From: Clytia hemisphaerica
Taxonomy: Eukaryota > Cnidaria > Hydrozoa > Leptothecata > Clytiidae
DNA: 64,000 nt
Assembly: GCA_902728285.1 (NCBI GenBank)
Contig: CACVBU010000284.1
Span: 127,841 to 191,840, forward strand
Direction: 5' to 3'
Made by a program: the position numbers and the translations under genes. Below the pieces are notes generated by a model. It was not told the origin of the DNA. It saw only the letters and a program-made list of their open reading frames with translations, and searched no databases. Positions 20,037 through 47,301 of this stretch are shown piece after piece; the first letter of the stretch is position 1; every line of letters starts with the position of its first letter.

Positions 20037-20065
20037 CAAATAAACGATCAGATCTTTTTTAAATC

Positions 20066-20363
20066 GCTGGGTGCTGTGGCGTGCATCTGTAATCTAGCTA
20101 CTTGGAGGCTGATCTCTCGAATGGCTTGAGTTCGGGACCACTGCAGTGCAGTCTCCTATGTCGAACGAGTGTCCACACTAAGCTCAATGTCAACATGGTT
20201 ATCATGTAGGAATGCAAGATACACCAGGTTCGATAATGAAGAACGCATTGGCCCAGGGCGGAAACGCAGCAGGCAAAAGTTCTCACAATGAGCAGTAGTG
20301 GGATAGCGCTTGTGAGTAGGCGTTGTGCTGTAGCTTGAACAATACAGTCGAACGAAGATCTTT
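20066..20363 (+). ncRNA. 7SL: 7SL SRP RNA gene, copy 1 (described as type copy)
   Basis: The RNA scaffold of the signal recognition particle, which pauses translation and targets ribosomes to the endoplasmic reticulum. The sequence shows the Alu domain (starting GCTGGGTGC) with UGUAAUC at nt 23-29, the SRP9/14 region. Helix 5 is closed by GATCT (nt 46-50) with AGATC (nt 291-295). Helix 6 is capped UGUA-GGAA-UGCA (nt 140-151), the SRP19 site. Helix 8 has GGAA at nt 195-198 and AGCAGG at nt 203-208, the SRP54 site. The length (298 nt) matches metazoan 7SL RNA of about 300 nt. A B-box-like GTTCGGGACC sits at 20130-20139. nt 105 is U; the spacer after it is A4. Only TTT follows the 3' end. It is a gene and not an Alu-type SINE, because the S domain is complete. 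Confidence 0.97.
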
Positions 20364-20450
20364 ATTCAGATTTCAACTCTTAACTCTATTTGCATCAATT
20401 AATCTAAAAGATGTCAAGTTCCAAATAAACGATCAGATCTTTTTTAAATC
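20364..20450 (+). promoter_or_regulatory. 7SL spacer, probable Pol III upstream promoter (type copy)
   Basis: This 87-bp spacer precedes copy 2 and recurs throughout the array. Relative to the next gene start it holds ATTTGCAT at -63 to -56 (20388-20395, the reverse complement of the octamer ATGCAAAT) and AAATAAA at -28 to -22 (a TATA-like position). External elements of this kind are known to assist Pol III transcription of 7SL genes together with internal boxes. That they function here is inferred from position and from conservation in every unit. Confidence 0.5.
20440..20445 (+). terminator. T6 run, first strong Pol III terminator after each 7SL gene (type copy)
   Basis: Copy 1 ends in only three T residues. 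The next run of four or more T on the coding strand is this T6, 77 nt beyond the gene end and 6-11 bp before the next gene. It recurs in nearly every unit. If it is the terminator, the primary transcript carries a trailer of about 80 nt. Confidence 0.4.
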
Positions 20451-20748
20451 GCTGGGTGCTGTGGCGTGCATCTGTAATCTAGCTACTTGGAGGCTGATCT
20501 CTCGAATGGCTTGAGTTCGGGACCACTGCAGTGCAGTCTCCTATGTCGAACGAGTGTCCACACTAAGCTCAATGTCAACATGGTTATCATGTAGGAATGC
20601 AAGATACACCAGGTTCGATAATGAAGAACGCATTGGCCCAGGGCGGAAACGCAGCAGGCAAAAGTTCTCACAATGAGCAGTAGTGGGATAGCGCTTGTGA
20701 GTAGGCGTTGTGCTGTAGCTTGAACAATACAGTCGAACGAAGATCTTT
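20451..20748 (+). ncRNA. 7SL: 7SL SRP RNA gene, copy 2
   Basis: Full-length; nt 105 U; following spacer A4. Confidence 0.95.
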
Positions 20749-20835
20749 ATTCAGATTTCAACTCTTAACTCTATTTGCATCAATTAATCTAAAAGATGTC
20801 AAGTTCCAAATAAACGATCAGATCTTTTTTAAATC

Positions 20836-21133
20836 GCTGGGTGCTGTGGCGTGCATCTGTAATCTAGCTACTTGGAGGCTGATCTCTCGAATGGCTTGAG
20901 TTCGGGACCACTGCAGTGCAGTCTCCTATGTCGAACGAGTGTCCACACTAAGCTCAATGTCAACATGGTTATCATGTAGGAATGCAAGATACACCAGGTT
21001 CGATAATGAAGAACGCATTGGCCCAGGGCGGAAACGCAGCAGGCAAAAGTTCTCACAATGAGCAGTAGTGGGATAGCGCTTGTGAGTAGGCGTTGTGCTG
21101 TAGCTTGAACAATACAGTCGAACGAAGATCTTT
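20836..21133 (+). ncRNA. 7SL: 7SL SRP RNA gene, copy 3
   Basis: Full-length; nt 105 U; following spacer A4. Confidence 0.95.
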
Positions 21134-21220
21134 ATTCAGATTTCAACTCTTAACTCTATTTGCATCAATTAATCTAAAAGATGTCAAGTTCCAAATAAAC
21201 GATCAGATCTTTTTTAAATC

Positions 21221-21518
21221 GCTGGGTGCTGTGGCGTGCATCTGTAATCTAGCTACTTGGAGGCTGATCTCTCGAATGGCTTGAGTTCGGGACCACTGCA
21301 GTGCAGTCTCCTATGTCGAACGAGTGTCCACACTAAGCTCAATGTCAACATGGTTATCATGTAGGAATGCAAGATACACCAGGTTCGATAATGAAGAACG
21401 CATTGGCCCAGGGCGGAAACGCAGCAGGCAAAAGTTCTCACAATGAGCAGTAGTGGGATAGCGCTTGTGAGTAGGCGTTGTGCTGTAGCTTGAACAATAC
21501 AGTCGAACGAAGATCTTT
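21221..21518 (+). ncRNA. 7SL: 7SL SRP RNA gene, copy 4
   Basis: Full-length; nt 105 U; following spacer A4. Confidence 0.95.
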
Positions 21519-21605
21519 ATTCAGATTTCAACTCTTAACTCTATTTGCATCAATTAATCTAAAAGATGTCAAGTTCCAAATAAACGATCAGATCTTTTTT
21601 AAATC

Positions 21606-21903
21606 GCTGGGTGCTGTGGCGTGCATCTGTAATCTAGCTACTTGGAGGCTGATCTCTCGAATGGCTTGAGTTCGGGACCACTGCAGTGCAGTCTCCTATG
21701 TCGAACGAGTGTCCACACTAAGCTCAATGTCAACATGGTTATCATGTAGGAATGCAAGATACACCAGGTTCGATAATGAAGAACGCATTGGCCCAGGGCG
21801 GAAACGCAGCAGGCAAAAGTTCTCACAATGAGCAGTAGTGGGATAGCGCTTGTGAGTAGGCGTTGTGCTGTAGCTTGAACAATACAGTCGAACGAAGATC
21901 TTT
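21606..21903 (+). ncRNA. 7SL: 7SL SRP RNA gene, copy 5
   Basis: Full-length; nt 105 U; following spacer A3 (384-bp unit). Confidence 0.95.
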
Positions 21904-21989
21904 ATTCAGATTTCAACTCTTAACTCTATTTGCATCAATTAATCTAAAGATGTCAAGTTCCAAATAAACGATCAGATCTTTTTTAAATC

Positions 21990-22287
21990 GCTGGGTGCTG
22001 TGGCGTGCATCTGTAATCTAGCTACTTGGAGGCTGATCTCTCGAATGGCTTGAGTTCGGGACCACTGCAGTGCAGTCTCCTATGTCGAACGAGTGTCCAC
22101 ACTAAGCTCAATGTCAACATGGTTATCATGTAGGAATGCAAGATACACCAGGTTCGATAATGAAGAACGCATTGGCCCAGGGCGGAAACGCAGCAGGCAA
22201 AAGTTCTCACAATGAGCAGTAGTGGGATAGCGCTTGTGAGTAGGCGTTGTGCTGTAGCTTGAACAATACAGTCGAACGAAGATCTTT
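21990..22287 (+). ncRNA. 7SL: 7SL SRP RNA gene, copy 6
   Basis: Full-length; nt 105 U. The following spacer is unusual: AGTTAGTTGCAAATAAACCATC replaces the usual AGTTCCAAATAAACGATC in part, making the unit 389 bp. Confidence 0.95.
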
Positions 22288-22378
22288 ATTCAGATTTCAA
22301 CTCTTAACTCTATTTGCATCAATTAATCTAAAAGATGTCAAGTTAGTTGCAAATAAACCATCAGATCTTTTTTAAATC

Positions 22379-22676
22379 GCTGGGTGCTGTGGCGTGCATC
22401 TGTAATCTAGCTACTTGGAGGCTGATCTCTCGAATGGCTTGAGTTCGGGACCACTGCAGTGCAGTCTCCTATGTCGAACGAGTGTCCACACTAAGCTCAA
22501 TGTCAACATGGTTATCATGTAGGAATGCAAGATACACCAGGTTCGATAATGAAGAACGCATTGGCCCAGGGCGGAAACGCAGCAGGCAAAAGTTCTCACA
22601 ATGAGCAGTAGTGGGATAGCGCTTGTGAGTAGGCGTTGTGCTGTAGCTTGAACAATACAGTCGAACGAAGATCTTT
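22379..22676 (+). ncRNA. 7SL: 7SL SRP RNA gene, copy 7
   Basis: Full-length; nt 105 U; following spacer A4. Confidence 0.95.
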
Positions 22677-22763
22677 ATTCAGATTTCAACTCTTAACTCT
22701 ATTTGCATCAATTAATCTAAAAGATGTCAAGTTCCAAATAAACGATCAGATCTTTTTTAAATC

Positions 22764-23061
22764 GCTGGGTGCTGTGGCGTGCATCTGTAATCTAGCTACT
22801 TGGAGGCTGATCTCTCGAATGGCTTGAGTTCGGGACCACTGCAGTGCAGTCTCCTATGTCGAACGAGTGTCCACACTAAGCTCAATGTCAACATGGTTAT
22901 CATGTAGGAATGCAAGATACACCAGGTTCGATAATGAAGAACGCATTGGCCCAGGGCGGAAACGCAGCAGGCAAAAGTTCTCACAATGAGCAGTAGTGGG
23001 ATAGCGCTTGTGAGTAGGCGTTGTGCTGTAGCTTGAACAATACAGTCGAACGAAGATCTTT
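22764..23061 (+). ncRNA. 7SL: 7SL SRP RNA gene, copy 8
   Basis: Full-length; nt 105 U; following spacer A4 but altered near its end (ACGATTTAAAGATC), leading into the deleted copy. Confidence 0.95.
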
Positions 23062-23151
23062 ATTCAGATTTCAACTCTTAACTCTATTTGCATCAATTAA
23101 TCTAAAAGATGTCAAGTTCCAAATAAACGATTTAAAGATCTTTTTTAAATC

Positions 23152-23324
23152 GCTTGGGTGTGTGGCTGTGCATCTGTAATCTAGCAATGGAGGCTGATCT
23201 CTCGAATGGCATTCCAGGGCGGAAACGCAGCAGGCAAAAGTTCTCACAATGAGCAGTAGTGGGATAGCGCTTGTGAGTAGGCGTTGTGCTGTAGCTTGAA
23301 CAATACAGTCGAACGAAGATCTTT
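23152..23324 (+). pseudogene. 7SL gene copy 9 with internal deletion
   Basis: Only 173 bp remain. The 5' Alu domain is present but mutated (GCTTGGGTGTGTGGCTGTGC, and the UGUAAUC motif survives). The sequence then jumps from CTCGAATGGC to CCAGGGCGGAAACG. This removes the B-box-like region, most of the 5' strand of helix 5, and helix 6. Helix 8 and the 3' strand remain intact. It cannot form a normal SRP RNA. Confidence 0.9.
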
Positions 23325-23411
23325 ATTCAGATTTCAACTCTTAACTCTATTTGCATCAATTAATCTAAAAGATGTCAAGTTCCAAATAAACGATCAGATC
23401 TTTTTTAAATC

Positions 23412-23709
23412 GCTGGGTGCTGTGGCGTGCATCTGTAATCTAGCTACTTGGAGGCTGATCTCTCGAATGGCTTGAGTTCGGGACCACTGCAGTGCAGTCT
23501 CCTATGTCGAACGAGTGTCCACACTAAGCTCAATGTCAACATGGTTATCATGTAGGAATGCAAGATACACCAGGTTCGATAATGAAGAACGCATTGGCCC
23601 AGGGCGGAAACGCAGCAGGCAAAAGTTCTCACAATGAGCAGTAGTGGGATAGCGCTTGTGAGTAGGCGTTGTGCTGTAGCTTGAACAATACAGTCGAACG
23701 AAGATCTTT
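23412..23709 (+). ncRNA. 7SL: 7SL SRP RNA gene, copy 10
   Basis: Full-length; nt 105 U; following spacer A3. First intact copy after the deleted one. Confidence 0.95.
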
Positions 23710-23795
23710 ATTCAGATTTCAACTCTTAACTCTATTTGCATCAATTAATCTAAAGATGTCAAGTTCCAAATAAACGATCAGATCTTTTTTAAATC

Positions 23796-24093
23796 GCTGG
23801 GTGCTGTGGCGTGCATCTGTAATCTAGCTACTTGGAGGCTGATCTCTCGAATGGCTTGAGTTCGGGACCACTGCAGTGCAGTCTCCTATGTCGAACGAGT
23901 GTCCACACTAAGCTCAATGTCAACATGGTTATCATGTAGGAATGCAAGATACACCAGGTTCGATAATGAAGAACGCATTGGCCCAGGGCGGAAACGCAGC
24001 AGGCAAAAGTTCTCACAATGAGCAGTAGTGGGATAGCGCTTGTGAGTAGGCGTTGTGCTGTAGCTTGAACAATACAGTCGAACGAAGATCTTT
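23796..24093 (+). ncRNA. 7SL: 7SL SRP RNA gene, copy 11
   Basis: Full-length; nt 105 U; following spacer A4. Confidence 0.95.
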
Positions 24094-24180
24094 ATTCAGA
24101 TTTCAACTCTTAACTCTATTTGCATCAATTAATCTAAAAGATGTCAAGTTCCAAATAAACGATCAGATCTTTTTTAAATC

Positions 24181-24478
24181 GCTGGGTGCTGTGGCGTGCA
24201 TCTGTAATCTAGCTACTTGGAGGCTGATCTCTCGAATGGCTTGAGTTCGGGACCACTGCAGTGCAGTCTCCTATGTCGAACGAGTGTCCACACTAAGCTC
24301 AATGTCAACATGGTTATCATGTAGGAATGCAAGATACACCAGGTTCGATAATGAAGAACGCATTGGCCCAGGGCGGAAACGCAGCAGGCAAAAGTTCTCA
24401 CAATGAGCAGTAGTGGGATAGCGCTTGTGAGTAGGCGTTGTGCTGTAGCTTGAACAATACAGTCGAACGAAGATCTTT
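24181..24478 (+). ncRNA. 7SL: 7SL SRP RNA gene, copy 12
   Basis: Full-length; nt 105 U; following spacer A4. Confidence 0.95.
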
Positions 24479-24565
24479 ATTCAGATTTCAACTCTTAACT
24501 CTATTTGCATCAATTAATCTAAAAGATGTCAAGTTCCAAATAAACGATCAGATCTTTTTTAAATC

Positions 24566-24863
24566 GCTGGGTGCTGTGGCGTGCATCTGTAATCTAGCTA
24601 CTTGGAGGCTGATCTCTCGAATGGCTTGAGTTCGGGACCACTGCAGTGCAGTCTCCTATGTCGAACGAGTGTCCACACTAAGCTCAATGTCAACATGGTT
24701 ATCATGTAGGAATGCAAGATACACCAGGTTCGATAATGAAGAACGCATTGGCCCAGGGCGGAAACGCAGCAGGCAAAAGTTCTCACAATGAGCAGTAGTG
24801 GGATAGCGCTTGTGAGTAGGCGTTGTGCTGTAGCTTGAACAATACAGTCGAACGAAGATCTTT
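24566..24863 (+). ncRNA. 7SL: 7SL SRP RNA gene, copy 13
   Basis: Full-length; nt 105 U; following spacer A3. Confidence 0.95.
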
Positions 24864-24949
24864 ATTCAGATTTCAACTCTTAACTCTATTTGCATCAATT
24901 AATCTAAAGATGTCAAGTTCCAAATAAACGATCAGATCTTTTTTAAATC

Positions 24950-25247
24950 GCTGGGTGCTGTGGCGTGCATCTGTAATCTAGCTACTTGGAGGCTGATCTC
25001 TCGAATGGCTTGAGTTCGGGACCACTGCAGTGCAGTCTCCTATGTCGAACGAGCGTCCACACTAAGCTCAATGTCAACATGGTTATCATGTAGGAATGCA
25101 AGATACACCAGGTTCGATAATGAAGAACGCATTGGCCCAGGGCGGAAACGCAGCAGGCAAAAGTTCTCACAATGAGCAGTAGTGGGATAGCGCTTGTGAG
25201 TAGGCGTTGTGCTGTAGCTTGAACAATACAGTCGAACGAAGATCTTT
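24950..25247 (+). ncRNA. 7SL: 7SL SRP RNA gene, copy 14
   Basis: Full-length; nt 105 C, an isolated C copy in the left half; following spacer TA3. Confidence 0.95.
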
Positions 25248-25334
25248 ATTCAGATTTCAACTCTTAACTCTATTTGCATCAATTAATCTTAAAGATGTCA
25301 AGTTCCAAATAAACGATCAGATCTTTTTTAAATC

Positions 25335-25632
25335 GCTGGGTGCTGTGGCGTGCATCTGTAATCTAGCTACTTGGAGGCTGATCTCTCGAATGGCTTGAGT
25401 TCGGGACCACTGCAGTGCAGTCTCCTATGTCGAACGAGTGTCCACACTAAGCTCAATGTCAACATGGTTATCATGTAGGAATGCAAGATACACCAGGTTC
25501 GATAATGAAGAACGCATTGGCCCAGGGCGGAAACGCAGCAGGCAAAAGTTCTCACAATGAGCAGTAGTGGGATAGCGCTTGTGAGTAGGCGTTGTGCTGT
25601 AGCTTGAACAATACAGTCGAACGAAGATCTTT
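25335..25632 (+). ncRNA. 7SL: 7SL SRP RNA gene, copy 15
   Basis: Full-length; nt 105 U; following spacer A4. Confidence 0.95.
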
Positions 25633-25719
25633 ATTCAGATTTCAACTCTTAACTCTATTTGCATCAATTAATCTAAAAGATGTCAAGTTCCAAATAAACG
25701 ATCAGATCTTTTTTAAATC

Positions 25720-26017
25720 GCTGGGTGCTGTGGCGTGCATCTGTAATCTAGCTACTTGGAGGCTGATCTCTCGAATGGCTTGAGTTCGGGACCACTGCAG
25801 TGCAGTCTCCTATGTCGAACGAGTGTCCACACTAAGCTCAATGTCAACATGGTTATCATGTAGGAATGCAAGATACACCAGGTTCGATAATGAAGAACGC
25901 ATTGGCCCAGGGCGGAAACGCAGCAGGCAAAAGTTCTCACAATGAGCAGTAGTGGGATAGCGCTTGTGAGTAGGCGTTGTGCTGTAGCTTGAACAATACA
26001 GTCGAACGAAGATCTTT
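25720..26017 (+). ncRNA. 7SL: 7SL SRP RNA gene, copy 16
   Basis: Full-length; nt 105 U; following spacer A4. Confidence 0.95.
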
Positions 26018-26104
26018 ATTCAGATTTCAACTCTTAACTCTATTTGCATCAATTAATCTAAAAGATGTCAAGTTCCAAATAAACGATCAGATCTTTTTTA
26101 AATC

Positions 26105-26402
26105 GCTGGGTGCTGTGGCGTGCATCTGTAATCTAGCTACTTGGAGGCTGATCTCTCGAATGGCTTGAGTTCGGGACCACTGCAGTGCAGTCTCCTATGT
26201 CGAACGAGTGTCCACACTAAGCTCAATGTCAACATGGTTATCATGTAGGAATGCAAGATACACCAGGTTCGATAATGAAGAACGCATTGGCCCAGGGCGG
26301 AAACGCAGCAGGCAAAAGTTCTCACAATGAGCAGTAGTGGGATAGCGCTTGTGAGTAGGCGTTGTGCTGTAGCTTGAACAATACAGTCGAACGAAGATCT
26401 TT
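26105..26402 (+). ncRNA. 7SL: 7SL SRP RNA gene, copy 17
   Basis: Full-length; nt 105 U; following spacer A4. Confidence 0.95.
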
Positions 26403-26489
26403 ATTCAGATTTCAACTCTTAACTCTATTTGCATCAATTAATCTAAAAGATGTCAAGTTCCAAATAAACGATCAGATCTTTTTTAAATC

Positions 26490-26787
26490 GCTGGGTGCTG
26501 TGGCGTGCATCTGTAATCTAGCTACTTGGAGGCTGATCTCTCGAATGGCTTGAGTTCGGGACCACTGCAGTGCAGTCTCCTATGTCGAACGAGTGTCCAC
26601 ACTAAGCTCAATGTCAACATGGTTATCATGTAGGAATGCAAGATACACCAGGTTCGATAATGAAGAACGCATTGGCCCAGGGCGGAAACGCAGCAGGCAA
26701 AAGTTCTCACAATGAGCAGTAGTGGGATAGCGCTTGTGAGTAGGCGTTGTGCTGTAGCTTGAACAATACAGTCGAACGAAGATCTTT
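26490..26787 (+). ncRNA. 7SL: 7SL SRP RNA gene, copy 18
   Basis: Full-length; nt 105 U; following spacer A4. Confidence 0.95.
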
Positions 26788-26874
26788 ATTCAGATTTCAA
26801 CTCTTAACTCTATTTGCATCAATTAATCTAAAAGATGTCAAGTTCCAAATAAACGATCAGATCTTTTTTAAATC

Positions 26875-27172
26875 GCTGGGTGCTGTGGCGTGCATCTGTA
26901 ATCTAGCTACTTGGAGGCTGATCTCTCGAATGGCTTGAGTTCGGGACCACTGCAGTGCAGTCTCCTATGTCGAACGAGTGTCCACACTAAGCTCAATGTC
27001 AACATGGTTATCATGTAGGAATGCAAGATACACCAGGTTCGATAATGAAGAACGCATTGGCCCAGGGCGGAAACGCAGCAGGCAAAAGTTCTCACAATGA
27101 GCAGTAGTGGGATAGCGCTTGTGAGTAGGCGTTGTGCTGTAGCTTGAACAATACAGTCGAACGAAGATCTTT
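26875..27172 (+). ncRNA. 7SL: 7SL SRP RNA gene, copy 19
   Basis: Full-length; nt 105 U; following spacer A4. Confidence 0.95.
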
Positions 27173-27259
27173 ATTCAGATTTCAACTCTTAACTCTATTT
27201 GCATCAATTAATCTAAAAGATGTCAAGTTCCAAATAAACGATCAGATCTTTTTTAAATC

Positions 27260-27557
27260 GCTGGGTGCTGTGGCGTGCATCTGTAATCTAGCTACTTGGA
27301 GGCTGATCTCTCGAATGGCTTGAGTTCGGGACCACTGCAGTGCAGTCTCCTATGTCGAACGAGTGTCCACACTAAGCTCAATGTCAACATGGTTATCATG
27401 TAGGAATGCAAGATACACCAGGTTCGATAATGAAGAACGCATTGGCCCAGGGCGGAAACGCAGCAGGCAAAAGTTCTCACAATGAGCAGTAGTGGGATAG
27501 CGCTTGTGAGTAGGCGTTGTGCTGTAGCTTGAACAATACAGTCGAACGAAGATCTTT
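27260..27557 (+). ncRNA. 7SL: 7SL SRP RNA gene, copy 20
   Basis: Full-length; nt 105 U; following spacer A4. Confidence 0.95.
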
Positions 27558-27644
27558 ATTCAGATTTCAACTCTTAACTCTATTTGCATCAATTAATCTA
27601 AAAGATGTCAAGTTCCAAATAAACGATCAGATCTTTTTTAAATC

Positions 27645-27942
27645 GCTGGGTGCTGTGGCGTGCATCTGTAATCTAGCTACTTGGAGGCTGATCTCTCGAA
27701 TGGCTTGAGTTCGGGACCACTGCAGTGCAGTCTCCTATGTCGAACGAGTGTCCACACTAAGCTCAATGTCAACATGGTTATCATGTAGGAATGCAAGATA
27801 CACCAGGTTCGATAATGAAGAACGCATTGGCCCAGGGCGGAAACGCAGCAGGCAAAAGTTCTCACAATGAGCAGTAGTGGGATAGCGCTTGTGAGTAGGC
27901 GTTGTGCTGTAGCTTGAACAATACAGTCGAACGAAGATCTTT
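27645..27942 (+). ncRNA. 7SL: 7SL SRP RNA gene, copy 21
   Basis: Full-length; nt 105 U; following spacer A4. Confidence 0.95.
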
Positions 27943-28029
27943 ATTCAGATTTCAACTCTTAACTCTATTTGCATCAATTAATCTAAAAGATGTCAAGTTC
28001 CAAATAAACGATCAGATCTTTTTTAAATC

Positions 28030-28327
28030 GCTGGGTGCTGTGGCGTGCATCTGTAATCTAGCTACTTGGAGGCTGATCTCTCGAATGGCTTGAGTTCGGG
28101 ACCACTGCAGTGCAGTCTCCTATGTCGAACGAGTGTCCACACTAAGCTCAATGTCAACATGGTTATCATGTAGGAATGCAAGATACACCAGGTTCGATAA
28201 TGAAGAACGCATTGGCCCAGGGCGGAAACGCAGCAGGCAAAAGTTCTCACAATGAGCAGTAGTGGGATAGCGCTTGTGAGTAGGCGTTGTGCTGTAGCTT
28301 GAACAATACAGTCGAACGAAGATCTTT
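28030..28327 (+). ncRNA. 7SL: 7SL SRP RNA gene, copy 22
   Basis: Full-length; nt 105 U; following spacer TA3. Confidence 0.95.
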
Positions 28328-28414
28328 ATTCAGATTTCAACTCTTAACTCTATTTGCATCAATTAATCTTAAAGATGTCAAGTTCCAAATAAACGATCAG
28401 ATCTTTTTTAAATC

Positions 28415-28712
28415 GCTGGGTGCTGTGGCGTGCATCTGTAATCTAGCTACTTGGAGGCTGATCTCTCGAATGGCTTGAGTTCGGGACCACTGCAGTGCAG
28501 TCTCCTATGTCGAACGAGTGTCCACACTAAGCTCAATGTCAACATGGTTATCATGTAGGAATGCAAGATACACCAGGTTCGATAATGAAGAACGCATTGG
28601 CCCAGGGCGGAAACGCAGCAGGCAAAAGTTCTCACAATGAGCAGTAGTGGGATAGCGCTTGTGAGTAGGCGTTGTGCTGTAGCTTGAACAATACAGTCGA
28701 ACGAAGATCTTT
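28415..28712 (+). ncRNA. 7SL: 7SL SRP RNA gene, copy 23
   Basis: Full-length; nt 105 U; following spacer A3. Confidence 0.95.
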
Positions 28713-28798
28713 ATTCAGATTTCAACTCTTAACTCTATTTGCATCAATTAATCTAAAGATGTCAAGTTCCAAATAAACGATCAGATCTTTTTTAAATC

Positions 28799-29096
28799 GC
28801 TGGGTGCTGTGGCGTGCATCTGTAATCTAGCTACTTGGAGGCTGATCTCTCGAATGGCTTGAGTTCGGGACCACTGCAGTGCAGTCTCCTATGTCGAACG
28901 AGTGTCCACACTAAGCTCAATGTCAACATGGTTATCATGTAGGAATGCAAGATACACCAGGTTCGATAATGAAGAACGCATTGGCCCAGGGCGGAAACGC
29001 AGCAGGCAAAAGTTCTCACAATGAGCAGTAGTGGGATAGCGCTTGTGAGTAGGCGTTGTGCTGTAGCTTGAACAATACAGTCGAACGAAGATCTTT
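28799..29096 (+). ncRNA. 7SL: 7SL SRP RNA gene, copy 24
   Basis: Full-length; nt 105 U; following spacer A4. Confidence 0.95.
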
Positions 29097-29183
29097 ATTC
29101 AGATTTCAACTCTTAACTCTATTTGCATCAATTAATCTAAAAGATGTCAAGTTCCAAATAAACGATCAGATCTTTTTTAAATC

Positions 29184-29481
29184 GCTGGGTGCTGTGGCGT
29201 GCATCTGTAATCTAGCTACTTGGAGGCTGATCTCTCGAATGGCTTGAGTTCGGGACCACTGCAGTGCAGTCTCCTATGTCGAACGAGTGTCCACACTAAG
29301 CTCAATGTCAACATGGTTATCATGTAGGAATGCAAGATACACCAGGTTCGATAATGAAGAACGCATTGGCCCAGGGCGGAAACGCAGCAGGCAAAAGTTC
29401 TCACAATGAGCAGTAGTGGGATAGCGCTTGTGAGTAGGCGTTGTGCTGTAGCTTGAACAATACAGTCGAACGAAGATCTTT
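29184..29481 (+). ncRNA. 7SL: 7SL SRP RNA gene, copy 25
   Basis: Full-length; nt 105 U; following spacer A4. Confidence 0.95.
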
Positions 29482-37946: not shown

Positions 37947-38033
37947 ATTCAGATTTCAACTCTTAACTCTATTTGCATCAATTAATCTAAAAGATGTCAA
38001 GTTCCAAATAAACGATCAGATCTTTTTTAAATC

Positions 38034-38331
38034 GCTGGGTGCTGTGGCGTGCATCTGTAATCTAGCTACTTGGAGGCTGATCTCTCGAATGGCTTGAGTT
38101 CGGGACCACTGCAGTGCAGTCTCCTATGTCGAACGAGTGTCCACACTAAGCTCAATGTCAACATGGTTATCATGTAGGAATGCAAGATACACCAGGTTCG
38201 ATAATGAAGAACGCATTGGCCCAGGGCGGAAACGCAGCAGGCAAAAGTTCTCACAATGAGCAGTAGTGGGATAGCGCTTGTGAGTAGGCGTTGTGCTGTA
38301 GCTTGAACAATACAGTCGAACGAAGATCTTT
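38034..38331 (+). ncRNA. 7SL: 7SL SRP RNA gene, copy 48
   Basis: Full-length; nt 105 U; following spacer A4. Confidence 0.95.
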
Positions 38332-38418
38332 ATTCAGATTTCAACTCTTAACTCTATTTGCATCAATTAATCTAAAAGATGTCAAGTTCCAAATAAACGA
38401 TCAGATCTTTTTTAAATC

Positions 38419-38716
38419 GCTGGGTGCTGTGGCGTGCATCTGTAATCTAGCTACTTGGAGGCTGATCTCTCGAATGGCTTGAGTTCGGGACCACTGCAGT
38501 GCAGTCTCCTATGTCGAACGAGTGTCCACACTAAGCTCAATGTCAACATGGTTATCATGTAGGAATGCAAGATACACCAGGTTCGATAATGAAGAACGCA
38601 TTGGCCCAGGGCGGAAACGCAGCAGGCAAAAGTTCTCACAATGAGCAGTAGTGGGATAGCGCTTGTGAGTAGGCGTTGTGCTGTAGCTTGAACAATACAG
38701 TCGAACGAAGATCTTT
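38419..38716 (+). ncRNA. 7SL: 7SL SRP RNA gene, copy 49
   Basis: Full-length; nt 105 U; following spacer A4. Confidence 0.95.
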
Positions 38717-38803
38717 ATTCAGATTTCAACTCTTAACTCTATTTGCATCAATTAATCTAAAAGATGTCAAGTTCCAAATAAACGATCAGATCTTTTTTAA
38801 ATC

Positions 38804-39101
38804 GCTGGGTGCTGTGGCGTGCATCTGTAATCTAGCTACTTGGAGGCTGATCTCTCGAATGGCTTGAGTTCGGGACCACTGCAGTGCAGTCTCCTATGTC
38901 GAACGAGTGTCCACACTAAGCTCAATGTCAACATGGTTATCATGTAGGAATGCAAGATACACCAGGTTCGATAATGAAGAACGCATTGGCCCAGGGCGGA
39001 AACGCAGCAGGCAAAAGTTCTCACAATGAGCAGTAGTGGGATAGCGCTTGTGAGTAGGCGTTGTGCTGTAGCTTGAACAATACAGTCGAACGAAGATCTT
39101 T
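38804..39101 (+). ncRNA. 7SL: 7SL SRP RNA gene, copy 50
   Basis: Full-length; nt 105 U; following spacer A3. Confidence 0.95.
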
Positions 39102-39187
39102 ATTCAGATTTCAACTCTTAACTCTATTTGCATCAATTAATCTAAAGATGTCAAGTTCCAAATAAACGATCAGATCTTTTTTAAATC

Positions 39188-39485
39188 GCTGGGTGCTGTG
39201 GCGTGCATCTGTAATCTAGCTACTTGGAGGCTGATCTCTCGAATGGCTTGAGTTCGGGACCACTGCAGTGCAGTCTCCTATGTCGAACGAGTGTCCACAC
39301 TAAGCTCAATGTCAACATGGTTATCATGTAGGAATGCAAGATACACCAGGTTCGATAATGAAGAACGCATTGGCCCAGGGCGGAAACGCAGCAGGCAAAA
39401 GTTCTCACAATGAGCAGTAGTGGGATAGCGCTTGTGAGTAGGCGTTGTGCTGTAGCTTGAACAATACAGTCGAACGAAGATCTTT
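39188..39485 (+). ncRNA. 7SL: 7SL SRP RNA gene, copy 51
   Basis: Full-length; nt 105 U; following spacer A4. Confidence 0.95.
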
Positions 39486-39572
39486 ATTCAGATTTCAACT
39501 CTTAACTCTATTTGCATCAATTAATCTAAAAGATGTCAAGTTCCAAATAAACGATCAGATCTTTTTTAAATC

Positions 39573-39870
39573 GCTGGGTGCTGTGGCGTGCATCTGTAAT
39601 CTAGCTACTTGGAGGCTGATCTCTCGAATGGCTTGAGTTCGGGACCACTGCAGTGCAGTCTCCTATGTCGAACGAGTGTCCACACTAAGCTCAATGTCAA
39701 CATGGTTATCATGTAGGAATGCAAGATACACCAGGTTCGATAATGAAGAACGCATTGGCCCAGGGCGGAAACGCAGCAGGCAAAAGTTCTCACAATGAGC
39801 AGTAGTGGGATAGCGCTTGTGAGTAGGCGTTGTGCTGTAGCTTGAACAATACAGTCGAACGAAGATCTTT
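39573..39870 (+). ncRNA. 7SL: 7SL SRP RNA gene, copy 52
   Basis: Full-length; nt 105 U; following spacer TA3. Confidence 0.95.
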
Positions 39871-39957
39871 ATTCAGATTTCAACTCTTAACTCTATTTGC
39901 ATCAATTAATCTTAAAGATGTCAAGTTCCAAATAAACGATCAGATCTTTTTTAAATC

Positions 39958-40255
39958 GCTGGGTGCTGTGGCGTGCATCTGTAATCTAGCTACTTGGAGG
40001 CTGATCTCTCGAATGGCTTGAGTTCGGGACCACTGCAGTGCAGTCTCCTATGTCGAACGAGCGTCCACACTAAGCTCAATGTCAACATGGTTATCATGTA
40101 GGAATGCAAGATACACCAGGTTCGATAATGAAGAACGCATTGGCCCAGGGCGGAAACGCAGCAGGCAAAAGTTCTCACAATGAGCAGTAGTGGGATAGCG
40201 CTTGTGAGTAGGCGTTGTGCTGTAGCTTGAACAATACAGTCGAACGAAGATCTTT
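39958..40255 (+). ncRNA. 7SL: 7SL SRP RNA gene, copy 53
   Basis: Full-length; nt 105 C; following spacer TA3. Start of the C-rich right block. Confidence 0.95.
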
Positions 40256-40342
40256 ATTCAGATTTCAACTCTTAACTCTATTTGCATCAATTAATCTTAA
40301 AGATGTCAAGTTCCAAATAAACGATCAGATCTTTTTTAAATC

Positions 40343-40640
40343 GCTGGGTGCTGTGGCGTGCATCTGTAATCTAGCTACTTGGAGGCTGATCTCTCGAATG
40401 GCTTGAGTTCGGGACCACTGCAGTGCAGTCTCCTATGTCGAACGAGCGTCCACACTAAGCTCAATGTCAACATGGTTATCATGTAGGAATGCAAGATACA
40501 CCAGGTTCGATAATGAAGAACGCATTGGCCCAGGGCGGAAACGCAGCAGGCAAAAGTTCTCACAATGAGCAGTAGTGGGATAGCGCTTGTGAGTAGGCGT
40601 TGTGCTGTAGCTTGAACAATACAGTCGAACGAAGATCTTT
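40343..40640 (+). ncRNA. 7SL: 7SL SRP RNA gene, copy 54
   Basis: Full-length; nt 105 C; following spacer TA3. Confidence 0.95.
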
Positions 40641-40727
40641 ATTCAGATTTCAACTCTTAACTCTATTTGCATCAATTAATCTTAAAGATGTCAAGTTCCA
40701 AATAAACGATCAGATCTTTTTTAAATC

Positions 40728-41025
40728 GCTGGGTGCTGTGGCGTGCATCTGTAATCTAGCTACTTGGAGGCTGATCTCTCGAATGGCTTGAGTTCGGGAC
40801 CACTGCAGTGCAGTCTCCTATGTCGAACGAGTGTCCACACTAAGCTCAATGTCAACATGGTTATCATGTAGGAATGCAAGATACACCAGGTTCGATAATG
40901 AAGAACGCATTGGCCCAGGGCGGAAACGCAGCAGGCAAAAGTTCTCACAATGAGCAGTAGTGGGATAGCGCTTGTGAGTAGGCGTTGTGCTGTAGCTTGA
41001 ACAATACAGTCGAACGAAGATCTTT
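40728..41025 (+). ncRNA. 7SL: 7SL SRP RNA gene, copy 55
   Basis: Full-length; nt 105 U; following spacer TA3. Confidence 0.95.
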
Positions 41026-41112
41026 ATTCAGATTTCAACTCTTAACTCTATTTGCATCAATTAATCTTAAAGATGTCAAGTTCCAAATAAACGATCAGAT
41101 CTTTTTTAAATC

Positions 41113-41410
41113 GCTGGGTGCTGTGGCGTGCATCTGTAATCTAGCTACTTGGAGGCTGATCTCTCGAATGGCTTGAGTTCGGGACCACTGCAGTGCAGTC
41201 TCCTATGTCGAACGAGTGTCCACACTAAGCTCAATGTCAACATGGTTATCATGTAGGAATGCAAGATACACCAGGTTCGATAATGAAGAACGCATTGGCC
41301 CAGGGCGGAAACGCAGCAGGCAAAAGTTCTCACAATGAGCAGTAGTGGGATAGCGCTTGTGAGTAGGCGTTGTGCTGTAGCTTGAACAATACAGTCGAAC
41401 GAAGATCTTT
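41113..41410 (+). ncRNA. 7SL: 7SL SRP RNA gene, copy 56
   Basis: Full-length; nt 105 U; following spacer A4. Confidence 0.95.
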
Positions 41411-41497
41411 ATTCAGATTTCAACTCTTAACTCTATTTGCATCAATTAATCTAAAAGATGTCAAGTTCCAAATAAACGATCAGATCTTTTTTAAATC

Positions 41498-41795
41498 GCT
41501 GGGTGCTGTGGCGTGCATCTGTAATCTAGCTACTTGGAGGCTGATCTCTCGAATGGCTTGAGTTCGGGACCACTGCAGTGCAGTCTCCTATGTCGAACGA
41601 GCGTCCACACTAAGCTCAATGTCAACATGGTTATCATGTAGGAATGCAAGATACACCAGGTTCGATAATGAAGAACGCATTGGCCCAGGGCGGAAACGCA
41701 GCAGGCAAAAGTTCTCACAATGAGCAGTAGTGGGATAGCGCTTGTGAGTAGGCGTTGTGCTGTAGCTTGAACAATACAGTCGAACGAAGATCTTT
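41498..41795 (+). ncRNA. 7SL: 7SL SRP RNA gene, copy 57
   Basis: Full-length; nt 105 C; following spacer TA3. From here to copy 70 all copies have C. Confidence 0.95.
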
Positions 41796-41882
41796 ATTCA
41801 GATTTCAACTCTTAACTCTATTTGCATCAATTAATCTTAAAGATGTCAAGTTCCAAATAAACGATCAGATCTTTTTTAAATC

Positions 41883-42180
41883 GCTGGGTGCTGTGGCGTG
41901 CATCTGTAATCTAGCTACTTGGAGGCTGATCTCTCGAATGGCTTGAGTTCGGGACCACTGCAGTGCAGTCTCCTATGTCGAACGAGCGTCCACACTAAGC
42001 TCAATGTCAACATGGTTATCATGTAGGAATGCAAGATACACCAGGTTCGATAATGAAGAACGCATTGGCCCAGGGCGGAAACGCAGCAGGCAAAAGTTCT
42101 CACAATGAGCAGTAGTGGGATAGCGCTTGTGAGTAGGCGTTGTGCTGTAGCTTGAACAATACAGTCGAACGAAGATCTTT
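41883..42180 (+). ncRNA. 7SL: 7SL SRP RNA gene, copy 58
   Basis: Full-length; nt 105 C; following spacer TA3. Confidence 0.95.
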
Positions 42181-42267
42181 ATTCAGATTTCAACTCTTAA
42201 CTCTATTTGCATCAATTAATCTTAAAGATGTCAAGTTCCAAATAAACGATCAGATCTTTTTTAAATC

Positions 42268-42565
42268 GCTGGGTGCTGTGGCGTGCATCTGTAATCTAGC
42301 TACTTGGAGGCTGATCTCTCGAATGGCTTGAGTTCGGGACCACTGCAGTGCAGTCTCCTATGTCGAACGAGCGTCCACACTAAGCTCAATGTCAACATGG
42401 TTATCATGTAGGAATGCAAGATACACCAGGTTCGATAATGAAGAACGCATTGGCCCAGGGCGGAAACGCAGCAGGCAAAAGTTCTCACAATGAGCAGTAG
42501 TGGGATAGCGCTTGTGAGTAGGCGTTGTGCTGTAGCTTGAACAATACAGTCGAACGAAGATCTTT
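42268..42565 (+). ncRNA. 7SL: 7SL SRP RNA gene, copy 59
   Basis: Full-length; nt 105 C; following spacer TA3. Confidence 0.95.
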
Positions 42566-42652
42566 ATTCAGATTTCAACTCTTAACTCTATTTGCATCAA
42601 TTAATCTTAAAGATGTCAAGTTCCAAATAAACGATCAGATCTTTTTTAAATC

Positions 42653-42950
42653 GCTGGGTGCTGTGGCGTGCATCTGTAATCTAGCTACTTGGAGGCTGAT
42701 CTCTCGAATGGCTTGAGTTCGGGACCACTGCAGTGCAGTCTCCTATGTCGAACGAGCGTCCACACTAAGCTCAATGTCAACATGGTTATCATGTAGGAAT
42801 GCAAGATACACCAGGTTCGATAATGAAGAACGCATTGGCCCAGGGCGGAAACGCAGCAGGCAAAAGTTCTCACAATGAGCAGTAGTGGGATAGCGCTTGT
42901 GAGTAGGCGTTGTGCTGTAGCTTGAACAATACAGTCGAACGAAGATCTTT
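42653..42950 (+). ncRNA. 7SL: 7SL SRP RNA gene, copy 60
   Basis: Full-length; nt 105 C; following spacer A3, the only A3 spacer in the C block. Confidence 0.95.
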
Positions 42951-43036
42951 ATTCAGATTTCAACTCTTAACTCTATTTGCATCAATTAATCTAAAGATGT
43001 CAAGTTCCAAATAAACGATCAGATCTTTTTTAAATC

Positions 43037-43334
43037 GCTGGGTGCTGTGGCGTGCATCTGTAATCTAGCTACTTGGAGGCTGATCTCTCGAATGGCTTGA
43101 GTTCGGGACCACTGCAGTGCAGTCTCCTATGTCGAACGAGCGTCCACACTAAGCTCAATGTCAACATGGTTATCATGTAGGAATGCAAGATACACCAGGT
43201 TCGATAATGAAGAACGCATTGGCCCAGGGCGGAAACGCAGCAGGCAAAAGTTCTCACAATGAGCAGTAGTGGGATAGCGCTTGTGAGTAGGCGTTGTGCT
43301 GTAGCTTGAACAATACAGTCGAACGAAGATCTTT
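43037..43334 (+). ncRNA. 7SL: 7SL SRP RNA gene, copy 61
   Basis: Full-length; nt 105 C; following spacer TA3. Confidence 0.95.
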
Positions 43335-43421
43335 ATTCAGATTTCAACTCTTAACTCTATTTGCATCAATTAATCTTAAAGATGTCAAGTTCCAAATAAA
43401 CGATCAGATCTTTTTTAAATC

Positions 43422-43719
43422 GCTGGGTGCTGTGGCGTGCATCTGTAATCTAGCTACTTGGAGGCTGATCTCTCGAATGGCTTGAGTTCGGGACCACTGC
43501 AGTGCAGTCTCCTATGTCGAACGAGCGTCCACACTAAGCTCAATGTCAACATGGTTATCATGTAGGAATGCAAGATACACCAGGTTCGATAATGAAGAAC
43601 GCATTGGCCCAGGGCGGAAACGCAGCAGGCAAAAGTTCTCACAATGAGCAGTAGTGGGATAGCGCTTGTGAGTAGGCGTTGTGCTGTAGCTTGAACAATA
43701 CAGTCGAACGAAGATCTTT
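43422..43719 (+). ncRNA. 7SL: 7SL SRP RNA gene, copy 62
   Basis: Full-length; nt 105 C; following spacer TA3. Confidence 0.95.
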
Positions 43720-43806
43720 ATTCAGATTTCAACTCTTAACTCTATTTGCATCAATTAATCTTAAAGATGTCAAGTTCCAAATAAACGATCAGATCTTTTT
43801 TAAATC

Positions 43807-44104
43807 GCTGGGTGCTGTGGCGTGCATCTGTAATCTAGCTACTTGGAGGCTGATCTCTCGAATGGCTTGAGTTCGGGACCACTGCAGTGCAGTCTCCTAT
43901 GTCGAACGAGCGTCCACACTAAGCTCAATGTCAACATGGTTATCATGTAGGAATGCAAGATACACCAGGTTCGATAATGAAGAACGCATTGGCCCAGGGC
44001 GGAAACGCAGCAGGCAAAAGTTCTCACAATGAGCAGTAGTGGGATAGCGCTTGTGAGTAGGCGTTGTGCTGTAGCTTGAACAATACAGTCGAACGAAGAT
44101 CTTT
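43807..44104 (+). ncRNA. 7SL: 7SL SRP RNA gene, copy 63
   Basis: Full-length; nt 105 C; following spacer TA3. Confidence 0.95.
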
Positions 44105-44191
44105 ATTCAGATTTCAACTCTTAACTCTATTTGCATCAATTAATCTTAAAGATGTCAAGTTCCAAATAAACGATCAGATCTTTTTTAAATC

Positions 44192-44489
44192 GCTGGGTGC
44201 TGTGGCGTGCATCTGTAATCTAGCTACTTGGAGGCTGATCTCTCGAATGGCTTGAGTTCGGGACCACTGCAGTGCAGTCTCCTATGTCGAACGAGCGTCC
44301 ACACTAAGCTCAATGTCAACATGGTTATCATGTAGGAATGCAAGATACACCAGGTTCGATAATGAAGAACGCATTGGCCCAGGGCGGAAACGCAGCAGGC
44401 AAAAGTTCTCACAATGAGCAGTAGTGGGATAGCGCTTGTGAGTAGGCGTTGTGCTGTAGCTTGAACAATACAGTCGAACGAAGATCTTT
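44192..44489 (+). ncRNA. 7SL: 7SL SRP RNA gene, copy 64
   Basis: Full-length; nt 105 C; following spacer TA3. Confidence 0.95.
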
Positions 44490-44576
44490 ATTCAGATTTC
44501 AACTCTTAACTCTATTTGCATCAATTAATCTTAAAGATGTCAAGTTCCAAATAAACGATCAGATCTTTTTTAAATC

Positions 44577-44874
44577 GCTGGGTGCTGTGGCGTGCATCTG
44601 TAATCTAGCTACTTGGAGGCTGATCTCTCGAATGGCTTGAGTTCGGGACCACTGCAGTGCAGTCTCCTATGTCGAACGAGCGTCCACACTAAGCTCAATG
44701 TCAACATGGTTATCATGTAGGAATGCAAGATACACCAGGTTCGATAATGAAGAACGCATTGGCCCAGGGCGGAAACGCAGCAGGCAAAAGTTCTCACAAT
44801 GAGCAGTAGTGGGATAGCGCTTGTGAGTAGGCGTTGTGCTGTAGCTTGAACAATACAGTCGAACGAAGATCTTT
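44577..44874 (+). ncRNA. 7SL: 7SL SRP RNA gene, copy 65
   Basis: Full-length; nt 105 C; following spacer TA3. Confidence 0.95.
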
Positions 44875-44961
44875 ATTCAGATTTCAACTCTTAACTCTAT
44901 TTGCATCAATTAATCTTAAAGATGTCAAGTTCCAAATAAACGATCAGATCTTTTTTAAATC

Positions 44962-45259
44962 GCTGGGTGCTGTGGCGTGCATCTGTAATCTAGCTACTTG
45001 GAGGCTGATCTCTCGAATGGCTTGAGTTCGGGACCACTGCAGTGCAGTCTCCTATGTCGAACGAGCGTCCACACTAAGCTCAATGTCAACATGGTTATCA
45101 TGTAGGAATGCAAGATACACCAGGTTCGATAATGAAGAACGCATTGGCCCAGGGCGGAAACGCAGCAGGCAAAAGTTCTCACAATGAGCAGTAGTGGGAT
45201 AGCGCTTGTGAGTAGGCGTTGTGCTGTAGCTTGAACAATACAGTCGAACGAAGATCTTT
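44962..45259 (+). ncRNA. 7SL: 7SL SRP RNA gene, copy 66
   Basis: Full-length; nt 105 C; following spacer TA3. Confidence 0.95.
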
Positions 45260-45346
45260 ATTCAGATTTCAACTCTTAACTCTATTTGCATCAATTAATC
45301 TTAAAGATGTCAAGTTCCAAATAAACGATCAGATCTTTTTTAAATC

Positions 45347-45644
45347 GCTGGGTGCTGTGGCGTGCATCTGTAATCTAGCTACTTGGAGGCTGATCTCTCG
45401 AATGGCTTGAGTTCGGGACCACTGCAGTGCAGTCTCCTATGTCGAACGAGCGTCCACACTAAGCTCAATGTCAACATGGTTATCATGTAGGAATGCAAGA
45501 TACACCAGGTTCGATAATGAAGAACGCATTGGCCCAGGGCGGAAACGCAGCAGGCAAAAGTTCTCACAATGAGCAGTAGTGGGATAGCGCTTGTGAGTAG
45601 GCGTTGTGCTGTAGCTTGAACAATACAGTCGAACGAAGATCTTT
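45347..45644 (+). ncRNA. 7SL: 7SL SRP RNA gene, copy 67
   Basis: Full-length; nt 105 C; following spacer TA3. Confidence 0.95.
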
Positions 45645-45731
45645 ATTCAGATTTCAACTCTTAACTCTATTTGCATCAATTAATCTTAAAGATGTCAAGT
45701 TCCAAATAAACGATCAGATCTTTTTTAAATC

Positions 45732-46029
45732 GCTGGGTGCTGTGGCGTGCATCTGTAATCTAGCTACTTGGAGGCTGATCTCTCGAATGGCTTGAGTTCG
45801 GGACCACTGCAGTGCAGTCTCCTATGTCGAACGAGCGTCCACACTAAGCTCAATGTCAACATGGTTATCATGTAGGAATGCAAGATACACCAGGTTCGAT
45901 AATGAAGAACGCATTGGCCCAGGGCGGAAACGCAGCAGGCAAAAGTTCTCACAATGAGCAGTAGTGGGATAGCGCTTGTGAGTAGGCGTTGTGCTGTAGC
46001 TTGAACAATACAGTCGAACGAAGATCTTT
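45732..46029 (+). ncRNA. 7SL: 7SL SRP RNA gene, copy 68
   Basis: Full-length; nt 105 C; following spacer TA3. Confidence 0.95.
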
Positions 46030-46116
46030 ATTCAGATTTCAACTCTTAACTCTATTTGCATCAATTAATCTTAAAGATGTCAAGTTCCAAATAAACGATC
46101 AGATCTTTTTTAAATC

Positions 46117-46414
46117 GCTGGGTGCTGTGGCGTGCATCTGTAATCTAGCTACTTGGAGGCTGATCTCTCGAATGGCTTGAGTTCGGGACCACTGCAGTGC
46201 AGTCTCCTATGTCGAACGAGCGTCCACACTAAGCTCAATGTCAACATGGTTATCATGTAGGAATGCAAGATACACCAGGTTCGATAATGAAGAACGCATT
46301 GGCCCAGGGCGGAAACGCAGCAGGCAAAAGTTCTCACAATGAGCAGTAGTGGGATAGCGCTTGTGAGTAGGCGTTGTGCTGTAGCTTGAACAATACAGTC
46401 GAACGAAGATCTTT
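46117..46414 (+). ncRNA. 7SL: 7SL SRP RNA gene, copy 69
   Basis: Full-length; nt 105 C; following spacer TA3. Confidence 0.95.
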
Positions 46415-46501
46415 ATTCAGATTTCAACTCTTAACTCTATTTGCATCAATTAATCTTAAAGATGTCAAGTTCCAAATAAACGATCAGATCTTTTTTAAAT
46501 C

Positions 46502-46799
46502 GCTGGGTGCTGTGGCGTGCATCTGTAATCTAGCTACTTGGAGGCTGATCTCTCGAATGGCTTGAGTTCGGGACCACTGCAGTGCAGTCTCCTATGTCGA
46601 ACGAGCGTCCACACTAAGCTCAATGTCAACATGGTTATCATGTAGGAATGCAAGATACACCAGGTTCGATAATGAAGAACGCATTGGCCCAGGGCGGAAA
46701 CGCAGCAGGCAAAAGTTCTCACAATGAGCAGTAGTGGGATAGCGCTTGTGAGTAGGCGTTGTGCTGTAGCTTGAACAATACAGTCGAACGAAGATCTTT
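46502..46799 (+). ncRNA. 7SL: 7SL SRP RNA gene, copy 70
   Basis: Full-length; nt 105 C; following spacer A4. Last C copy. Confidence 0.95.
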
Positions 46800-46886
46800 A
46801 TTCAGATTTCAACTCTTAACTCTATTTGCATCAATTAATCTAAAAGATGTCAAGTTCCAAATAAACGATCAGATCTTTTTTAAATC

Positions 46887-47184
46887 GCTGGGTGCTGTGG
46901 CGTGCATCTGTAATCTAGCTACTTGGAGGCTGATCTCTCGAATGGCTTGAGTTCGGGACCACTGCAGTGCAGTCTCCTATGTCGAACGAGTGTCCACACT
47001 AAGCTCAATGTCAACATGGTTATCATGTAGGAATGCAAGATACACCAGGTTCGATAATGAAGAACGCATTGGCCCAGGGCGGAAACGCAGCAGGCAAAAG
47101 TTCTCACAATGAGCAGTAGTGGGATAGCGCTTGTGAGTAGGCGTTGTGCTGTAGCTTGAACAATACAGTCGAACGAAGATCTTT
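46887..47184 (+). ncRNA. 7SL: 7SL SRP RNA gene, copy 71 (last full copy)
   Basis: Full-length; nt 105 returns to U; following spacer A4 with one C lost (AGTTCAAATAAACG). Confidence 0.95.
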
Positions 47185-47270
47185 ATTCAGATTTCAACTC
47201 TTAACTCTATTTGCATCAATTAATCTAAAAGATGTCAAGTTCAAATAAACGATCAGATCTTTTTTAAATC

Positions 47271-47301
47271 ACTGGGTGCTGTGGCGTGCATCTGTAATCT
47301 A
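47271..47301 (+). pseudogene. 7SL copy 72, truncated after about 31 nt
   Basis: The unit begins normally apart from its first base (ACTGGGTGCTG). It stops right after the TGTAATCTA of the Alu domain, where unrelated sequence begins. This is the right edge of the array. Confidence 0.9.

What the first reader, a model, noticed from the sequence alone, without database searches (positions are those of the whole stretch)
20037..47301. At least 70 tandem full-length 7SL (SRP) RNA genes
Every 385-bp unit contains a structurally complete SRP RNA: Alu-domain UGUAAUC, helix 6 with a GGAA cap, helix 8 with GGAA and AGCAGG, and helix 5 closure. Most animals are known to carry only a handful of 7SL genes, dispersed or in small clusters. 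A homogeneous array of this size resembles 5S rDNA or snRNA arrays and would be an unusual genomic organisation for SRP RNA. It could serve a very high secretory demand or be a by-product of satellite-like amplification.
Basis: partly seen in the sequence, partly recalled or inferred. Interest (0 to 1): 0.92.

Follow-up and report, generated by a model that had tools for sequence, protein, structure and literature searches.

The report
Seventy tandem SRP RNA genes, hydrozoan
A genome that is very probably the jellyfish Clytia's carries at least 70 nearly identical head-to-tail copies of the gene for signal recognition particle RNA; it is a real and unusual gene array, though a similar one has been reported in the related hydroid Hydractinia.

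Summary
In detail: 70 full-length Metazoa_SRP genes on + (20066-47184), 227.3-228.9 bits against a cut-off of 70, in 385-bp units with two gene haplotypes (49 T, 21 C at nt 105). The left end is a 555-N run, so 70 is a minimum in this assembly.

The genome also has three dispersed full-length 7SL genes and a second, decayed 7SL array. Array and dispersed genes differ at 34-44 of 298 sites, yet the array breaks only 0-3 of 92-96 base pairs of the dispersed genes (random 11-13); three decayed copies break pairs at the random rate. So the array-type RNA evolved as a working SRP RNA. Variant order suggests local homogenisation.

Oddity: all 70 genes end in TTT, the dispersed ones in T4-T5; the array's next T-run is T6, about 77 nt on.

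Neuropeptide repeats point to Clytia hemisphaerica. SRP RNA arrays are already reported for a draft Hydractinia echinata genome: new member of a known kind. Expression and true copy number are untested.

The parts
20066..47184 (+). array of 70 full-length SRP (7SL) RNA genes, 298 nt each, 385-bp unit
20066..20363 (+). first complete gene (T haplotype), used as type gene
20170..20170 (+). gene nt 105, the only variable site among the 70 genes (T 49, C 21); C is shared by the three dispersed genes and the three C517 copies compared
20361..20363 (+). T3 at the gene end (70 of 70), where the three dispersed genes have T4-T5
20364..20450 (+). 87-bp spacer, type a (31 of 69 spacers; five types in all)
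20388..20395 (+). octamer ATTTGCAT, -63 to -56 of the next gene; found after 70 of 70 genes; role not tested
20424..20429 (+). TATA-like AATAAA, -27 to -22 of the next gene; before 70 of 70 genes
20440..20445 (+). T6 at -11 to -6 of the next gene, the first T4+ run after the preceding gene; before 70 of 70 genes
23155..23411 (+). deleted unit: unit positions 3-60 followed by 188-385
47272..47301 (+). truncated 5' stub of a further unit at the right edge
47597..47697 (+). old decayed 7SL piece (gene 33-137, 80% identity)
19482..20036 (.). run of 555 N at the left edge of the array
7870..19481 (.). 113-bp satellite left of the N run (neighbour, not part of the gene array)

Best explanation
This is a tandem multigene family of functional SRP RNA genes in a hydrozoan genome, kept uniform by unequal crossing-over and gene conversion, as 5S rDNA is. 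Shown: 70 complete genes, near-identical units, local clustering of variants, structure-preserving divergence from the dispersed genes, and a second array elsewhere that has decayed. Inferred: each unit is transcribed by RNA polymerase III from internal boxes plus an AT-rich element near -25, and ends either weakly at T3 or at the T6 just before the next gene, followed by 3' trimming. The array would then supply much of the cell's SRP RNA.
For: 70 complete genes. CM scores 227.3-228.9 against 227.1, 223.6 and 219.8 for the dispersed genes and 83-199.7 for the ten C517 matches over threshold. With a structure predicted from the three dispersed genes alone, the 35 array differences from C628 break 1 of 93 pairs (random 11.4; 0 of 5000 as good); the three gap-free C517 copies break 4, 8 and 7 of 94 array pairs (random 5.4, 9.0, 9.0). 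Rfam-derived pairs agree: 0 of 92 (random 11.3) against 4, 7 and 8 of 99 (random 5.6, 9.2, 9.4). Gene haplotypes form 13 runs against 30.4 shuffled, and all four combinations of T/C with spacer a/b occur. AATAAA at -27 to -22 before 70 of 70 genes; AT-rich sequence lies in a similar place upstream of all three dispersed genes. U1 and U2 are arrayed in the same assembly.
Against: No expression data. All 70 genes end in T3, which for Pol III (general knowledge) is a weak terminator, while the three dispersed genes end in T4-T5. Two-sided compensations are not above chance (1-3 per array-dispersed comparison, p 0.07-0.54); the evidence is avoidance of broken pairs only. Read the other way, the dispersed genes break 7, 4 and 7 of the array's 99 Rfam pairs (random 12.2, 13.9, 15.2; p 0.017, below 0.0002 and 0.0006), a weaker contrast. 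The randomisation ignores sequence context. Variation within the array is too low to show present selection. U6 showed no such array (9 matches on 7 contigs, 48 of 45820 candidates scored), so arraying is not general.
Confidence: 0.74

Rival explanations
1. The array is a 7SL-derived satellite: a once-functional gene amplified passively, now silent or poorly terminated, while the dispersed genes supply the SRP RNA.
For: T3 gene ends in 70 of 70 against T4-T5 in the three dispersed genes; a related array (C517) is plainly decaying; satellite neighbours; homogeneity can come from turnover alone.
Against: Array differences from the dispersed genes avoid breaking pairs and the array's CM scores are the highest of those measured, so the lineage was under structural constraint until recent amplification.
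Confidence: 0.2
2. Assembly artefact: one or a few units multiplied by the assembler beside the N run.
For: An N run abuts the array; units are nearly identical; no reads available.
Against: Five spacer types, two gene types, one 389-bp and one deleted unit; the longest recurring variant string that holds more than one type is 8 units. A second, diverged array with the same spacer exists on C517.
Confidence: 0.06

Closest known systems
   Same: Hydrozoan; evenly spaced near-identical ncRNA genes; SRP RNA among the arrayed families.
   Different: Here very probably another hydrozoan order (Leptothecata). The paper's main text says RNA arrays were not found in cnidarians other than Hydractinia and Nematostella; its supplements were not read, so unit size and copy number of its SRP arrays are not compared. 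[quoted passage not shown] here 87.
5S rDNA and snRNA tandem arrays (general knowledge)
   Same: Short head-to-tail units, homogenised; Pol III for 5S.
   Different: The gene is 7SL, which is usually low-copy.
Rodent 4.5SH RNA genes (7SL-derived; PMC10137851, passages read)
   Same: 7SL-related Pol III gene in hundreds of tandem copies, TATA-like box at -31/-24.
   Different: 4.5SH is not a full SRP RNA (general knowledge) and its unit is 4-5 kb; here full-length SRP RNA in 385 bp.

Membership tests
Metazoan SRP RNA (Rfam RF00017) | full-length covariance match over the gathering score | tested here: met
   70 of 70, model 1-299, 227.3-228.9 bits against 70
Metazoan SRP RNA (Rfam RF00017) | Alu-domain UGUAAUC, helix 6 GNAR cap, helix 8 loop motifs (named from recall) | tested here: met
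   alignments: CUGUAAUC, UAGGAAUG, CCCAGGGCGGAAACGCAGCAGG
Metazoan SRP RNA (Rfam RF00017) | divergence that preserves the secondary structure | tested here: met
   with three decayed C517 copies as contrast; weaker when read from the array to the dispersed genes
Metazoan SRP RNA (Rfam RF00017) | RNA expressed and bound by SRP proteins | not testable with these tools
   no transcript or protein-binding data
Canonical Pol III type 2 gene | T4+ terminator directly after the gene | tested here: not met
   CTTTATT in 70 of 70; next T4+ run is T6 from nt 77 of the type spacer. Not a defining feature of SRP RNA
Canonical Pol III type 2 gene | upstream TATA-like element near -30/-24 and internal A and B boxes | tested here: inconclusive
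   AATAAA at -27 to -22 before 70 of 70; my B-box pattern had no match in the gene and my A-box pattern matched only at 184-193, an unlikely place; by eye a B-box-like GAGTTCGGGACC at gene 63-74
7SL-derived SINE | dispersed shortened copies with an A-rich tail (general knowledge) | tested here: not met
   head-to-tail full-length copies with a fixed spacer of 86-87 bp in 67 of 69
Tandem ncRNA gene array | many evenly spaced near-identical units including spacer | tested here: met

The most novel reading that the evidence does not exclude
The genome holds two SRP RNA types: a dispersed type with strong terminators and an amplified array type that differs from all three dispersed genes at 24 sites while keeping the fold. 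As with oocyte and somatic 5S rRNA (general knowledge), the array type could be a stage- or cell-specific SRP RNA, for example for oocytes or for nematocytes with their huge secretory load, each unit being ended at the T6 that also lies in the next gene's promoter.
Probability: 0.15. Interest if true: 0.8.

Novelty: new member of a known kind. Interest (0 to 1): 0.5.

Why it matters
It would place a large SRP RNA gene array in a second hydrozoan lineage and suggests that arraying of usually low-copy ncRNA genes is a wider hydrozoan habit that earlier assemblies missed. It also gives a natural case of two diverged SRP RNA types in one genome, with diagnostic sites that make their use directly testable by RNA sequencing.

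Tried and rejected
Species by GFP family: no match among 4 candidates, but the tool says this does not show absence. Species by assembly size in papers: nothing useful in 22 listed papers; Hydractinia symbiolongicarpus (406 Mb, 4840 scaffolds), Podocoryna americana (327 Mb) and Bougainvillia (375 Mb, 350 contigs) do not fit 417.4 Mb in 951 contigs; Clytia is given as about 445 Mb, so it does not match exactly either. GLWamide pattern: 11 hits, none clustered, so no sign of the Hydractinia KPPGLW repeat; in the seven of eleven loci that I translated no Clytia GLW peptide was seen either. Pfam on four window ORFs: weak zinc-finger hits below the cut-off on one, nothing on three. tRNA scan of the window: none. 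The 113-bp satellite as partner of the 7SL array: a relative adjoins the second 7SL array too, but the satellite occurs on at least eight other contigs, so the pairing may be chance; satellite against 7SL unit gave exact matches of 7-9 bases only. The Rfam pair list leaves 20-28 of 120 pairs non-standard in these sequences, so a structure from the dispersed genes was used as well; both are reported.
Full report
OBSERVATION. The window (64000 bases) has 70 matches to Rfam Metazoa_SRP at or above the gathering score, all on +, all full length, 227.3-228.9 bits. They sit in units of 385 bp. An exact anchor occurs 70 times; the 69 spacings are 385 or 384 except one of 389 and one of 648. The 648 step contains a unit with an internal deletion. 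The 70 genes have only two sequences, 49 and 21 copies, which differ at nt 105. The 69 spacers have five types, of which three (31, 25 and 11 copies) make up 67. The array starts at a run of 555 N and ends in a 30-base stub, followed by an older 7SL piece of 80% identity. Seventy is therefore a minimum for this assembly.

WHERE IT LIES. The window is part of contig C203 of an unnamed 417.4 Mb genome in 951 contigs. COX1 there has three in-frame TGA codons, and a frame that I read by eye as cytochrome b lies in the same locus; this fits the code used by cnidarian mitochondria, among a few other groups (general knowledge). A pattern for the peptide core WLxGRFG gives 28 hits (control pattern 16), of which 17 lie within 700 bases on C507 and all read WLNGRFG; PMC8638164 reports seventeen copies of pQWLNGRFamide in one Clytia hemisphaerica gene (passages) and gives other cores or numbers for the other colonial hydrozoans in the passages I saw. 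A pattern for LPMKFG, a peptide that paper calls novel in C. hemisphaerica (section 8), gives 86 hits (control 3), mostly single and reading F at the first place, with clusters of 7 on C148 and 6 on C430 that read LPMKFG; the paper counts four copies. Against: no GFP family match, although Clytia is known for GFPs (recalled), with the tool's warning that this does not show absence; and a published Clytia size of about 445 Mb (passage in PMC12239608). I take the genome as very probably C. hemisphaerica or a close relative.

OTHER 7SL COPIES. Three dispersed full-length genes lie on C628, C883 and C245, at 223.6, 227.1 and 219.8 bits. In ungapped comparison they differ from the T-type array gene at 35, 39 and 44 of 298 sites and from each other at 11-23. 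A second array on C517 spans 1684992-1690989 in two blocks; its pieces, spacer included, are 88-98% identical to the unit, and its ten matches over threshold score 83-199.7 bits (one copy was split by the edge of a fetched stretch and so scores low). Shorter pieces lie on C851 and C207. The spacer search found 82 candidates and scored 40; 39 of the 40 listed are in C203 and one in C517. So no other large array is evident, but these counts are lower bounds.

IS THE ARRAY TYPE FUNCTIONAL? I predicted a structure from the three dispersed genes only and asked how many standard pairs of each dispersed gene the array breaks. From C628, 35 differences break 1 of 93; random placement of the same kinds of changes breaks 11.4, and 0 of 5000 trials did as well. 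From C883 and C245 the C-type gene breaks 1 of 95 and 1 of 93 (random 13.3, 12.7; 0 of 5000). For contrast, three C517 copies, chosen because they align without gaps, break 4, 8 and 7 of 94 of the array's pairs (random 5.4, 9.0, 9.0; p 0.20-0.38). With Rfam's own pairs the array breaks 0 of 92, 1 of 96 and 3 of 95 for C628, C883 and C245 (random 11.2-13.2), and C517 4, 7 and 8 of 99 (random 5.6, 9.2, 9.4). In the reverse direction the dispersed genes break 7, 4 and 7 of 99 (random 12.2, 13.9, 15.2), a weaker contrast. Two-sided compensations are few and not above chance. The reading is that the array-type gene diverged under structural constraint, and that C517 then drifted freely.

HOMOGENISATION. 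Along the array, T and C genes form 13 runs where shuffling gives 30.4, spacer types form 34 against 43.8, and all four combinations of T/C with spacer a/b occur (32, 7, 2 and 18 for T-a, T-b, C-a and C-b). The C form is shared by the three dispersed genes and the three C517 copies compared, so T is probably derived and now in 49 of 70. The longest recurring variant string that holds more than one type is 8 units. This looks like local unequal exchange and not like a copied assembly block, but no reads were available.

PROMOTER AND TERMINATOR. Before 70 of 70 genes stand CAAATAAAC (-29 to -21) and TTTTTTAAATC (-11 to -1); after 70 of 70 the gene end reads GAAGATCTTTATTCAGAT; the octamer ATTTGCAT follows 70 of 70. 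The dispersed genes end in T5 (C628), T4 (C883) and T5 (C245) and have AT-rich sequence at roughly -40 to -15. The array genes thus lack the T4+ run that these relatives have; in the type spacer the first is T6, from nt 77 after the gene, at -11 of the next gene. C628 and C883 also have a T-run just before the gene (T6 and T5), C245 has not, so the T6 may be an old promoter feature as well as a fallback terminator. This is inference.

THE REST OF THE GENOME. U1 and U2 are arrayed on C212, linked and in the same orientation. U6 is not: 9 matches on 7 contigs, with 48 of 45820 candidates scored. 5S rRNA and tRNA were not searched genome-wide.

PRIOR KNOWLEDGE. My other searches covered open-licence papers only; I saw titles and starts of abstracts of the listed rows, which are a part of the papers found. 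No further metazoan SRP RNA array, and none in Clytia, showed there. Rodent 4.5SH genes, derived from 7SL, come in hundreds of tandem copies of 4-5 kb (PMC10137851, passages). So the kind is known and the instance appears new.

VERDICT. A real array of structurally intact SRP RNA genes, most likely functional and evolving in concert, in a genome that also arrays U1 and U2. New member of a known kind; interest 0.5. The open and testable question is whether the array type is a separate, specially used SRP RNA.

Noticed in passing
G000:C212 about 124500-285000: U1 and U2 snRNA genes alternate on the same strand: each of 25 U1 matches there has a U2 match 400-461 nt upstream (start to start), mostly in units of about 6.0-6.3 kb. 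C869 holds further U1 and U2 copies, several of low score, paralleling the intact and decayed 7SL arrays.
   Followed up: partly
window 7870-19481: 113-bp satellite with an inverted-repeat core (CCGCGTTT...AAACGCGG; 95 exact copies of the 29-base core). A relative sharing a 36-bp core adjoins the decayed 7SL array on C517 in the other orientation; the satellite also occurs on at least eight other contigs.
   Followed up: partly
window 732-1936: 137-bp tandem repeat, 8.8 copies.
   Followed up: no
window 5282-7105: 607-aa open frame without a Pfam match; by eye it resembles transposon-type proteins.
   Followed up: no
G000:C148:30365-30720 and G000:C430:718177-718487: Two loci with 7 and 6 clustered LPMKFG repeats, more copies than the four published for the C. 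hemisphaerica preprohormone.
   Followed up: no
G000:C203:123847-127840: A run of 3994 N reaches the last base before the window.
   Followed up: no
L062:1075-1146 and L010:6503-6591: tRNA genes near two of the three dispersed 7SL genes.
   Followed up: no
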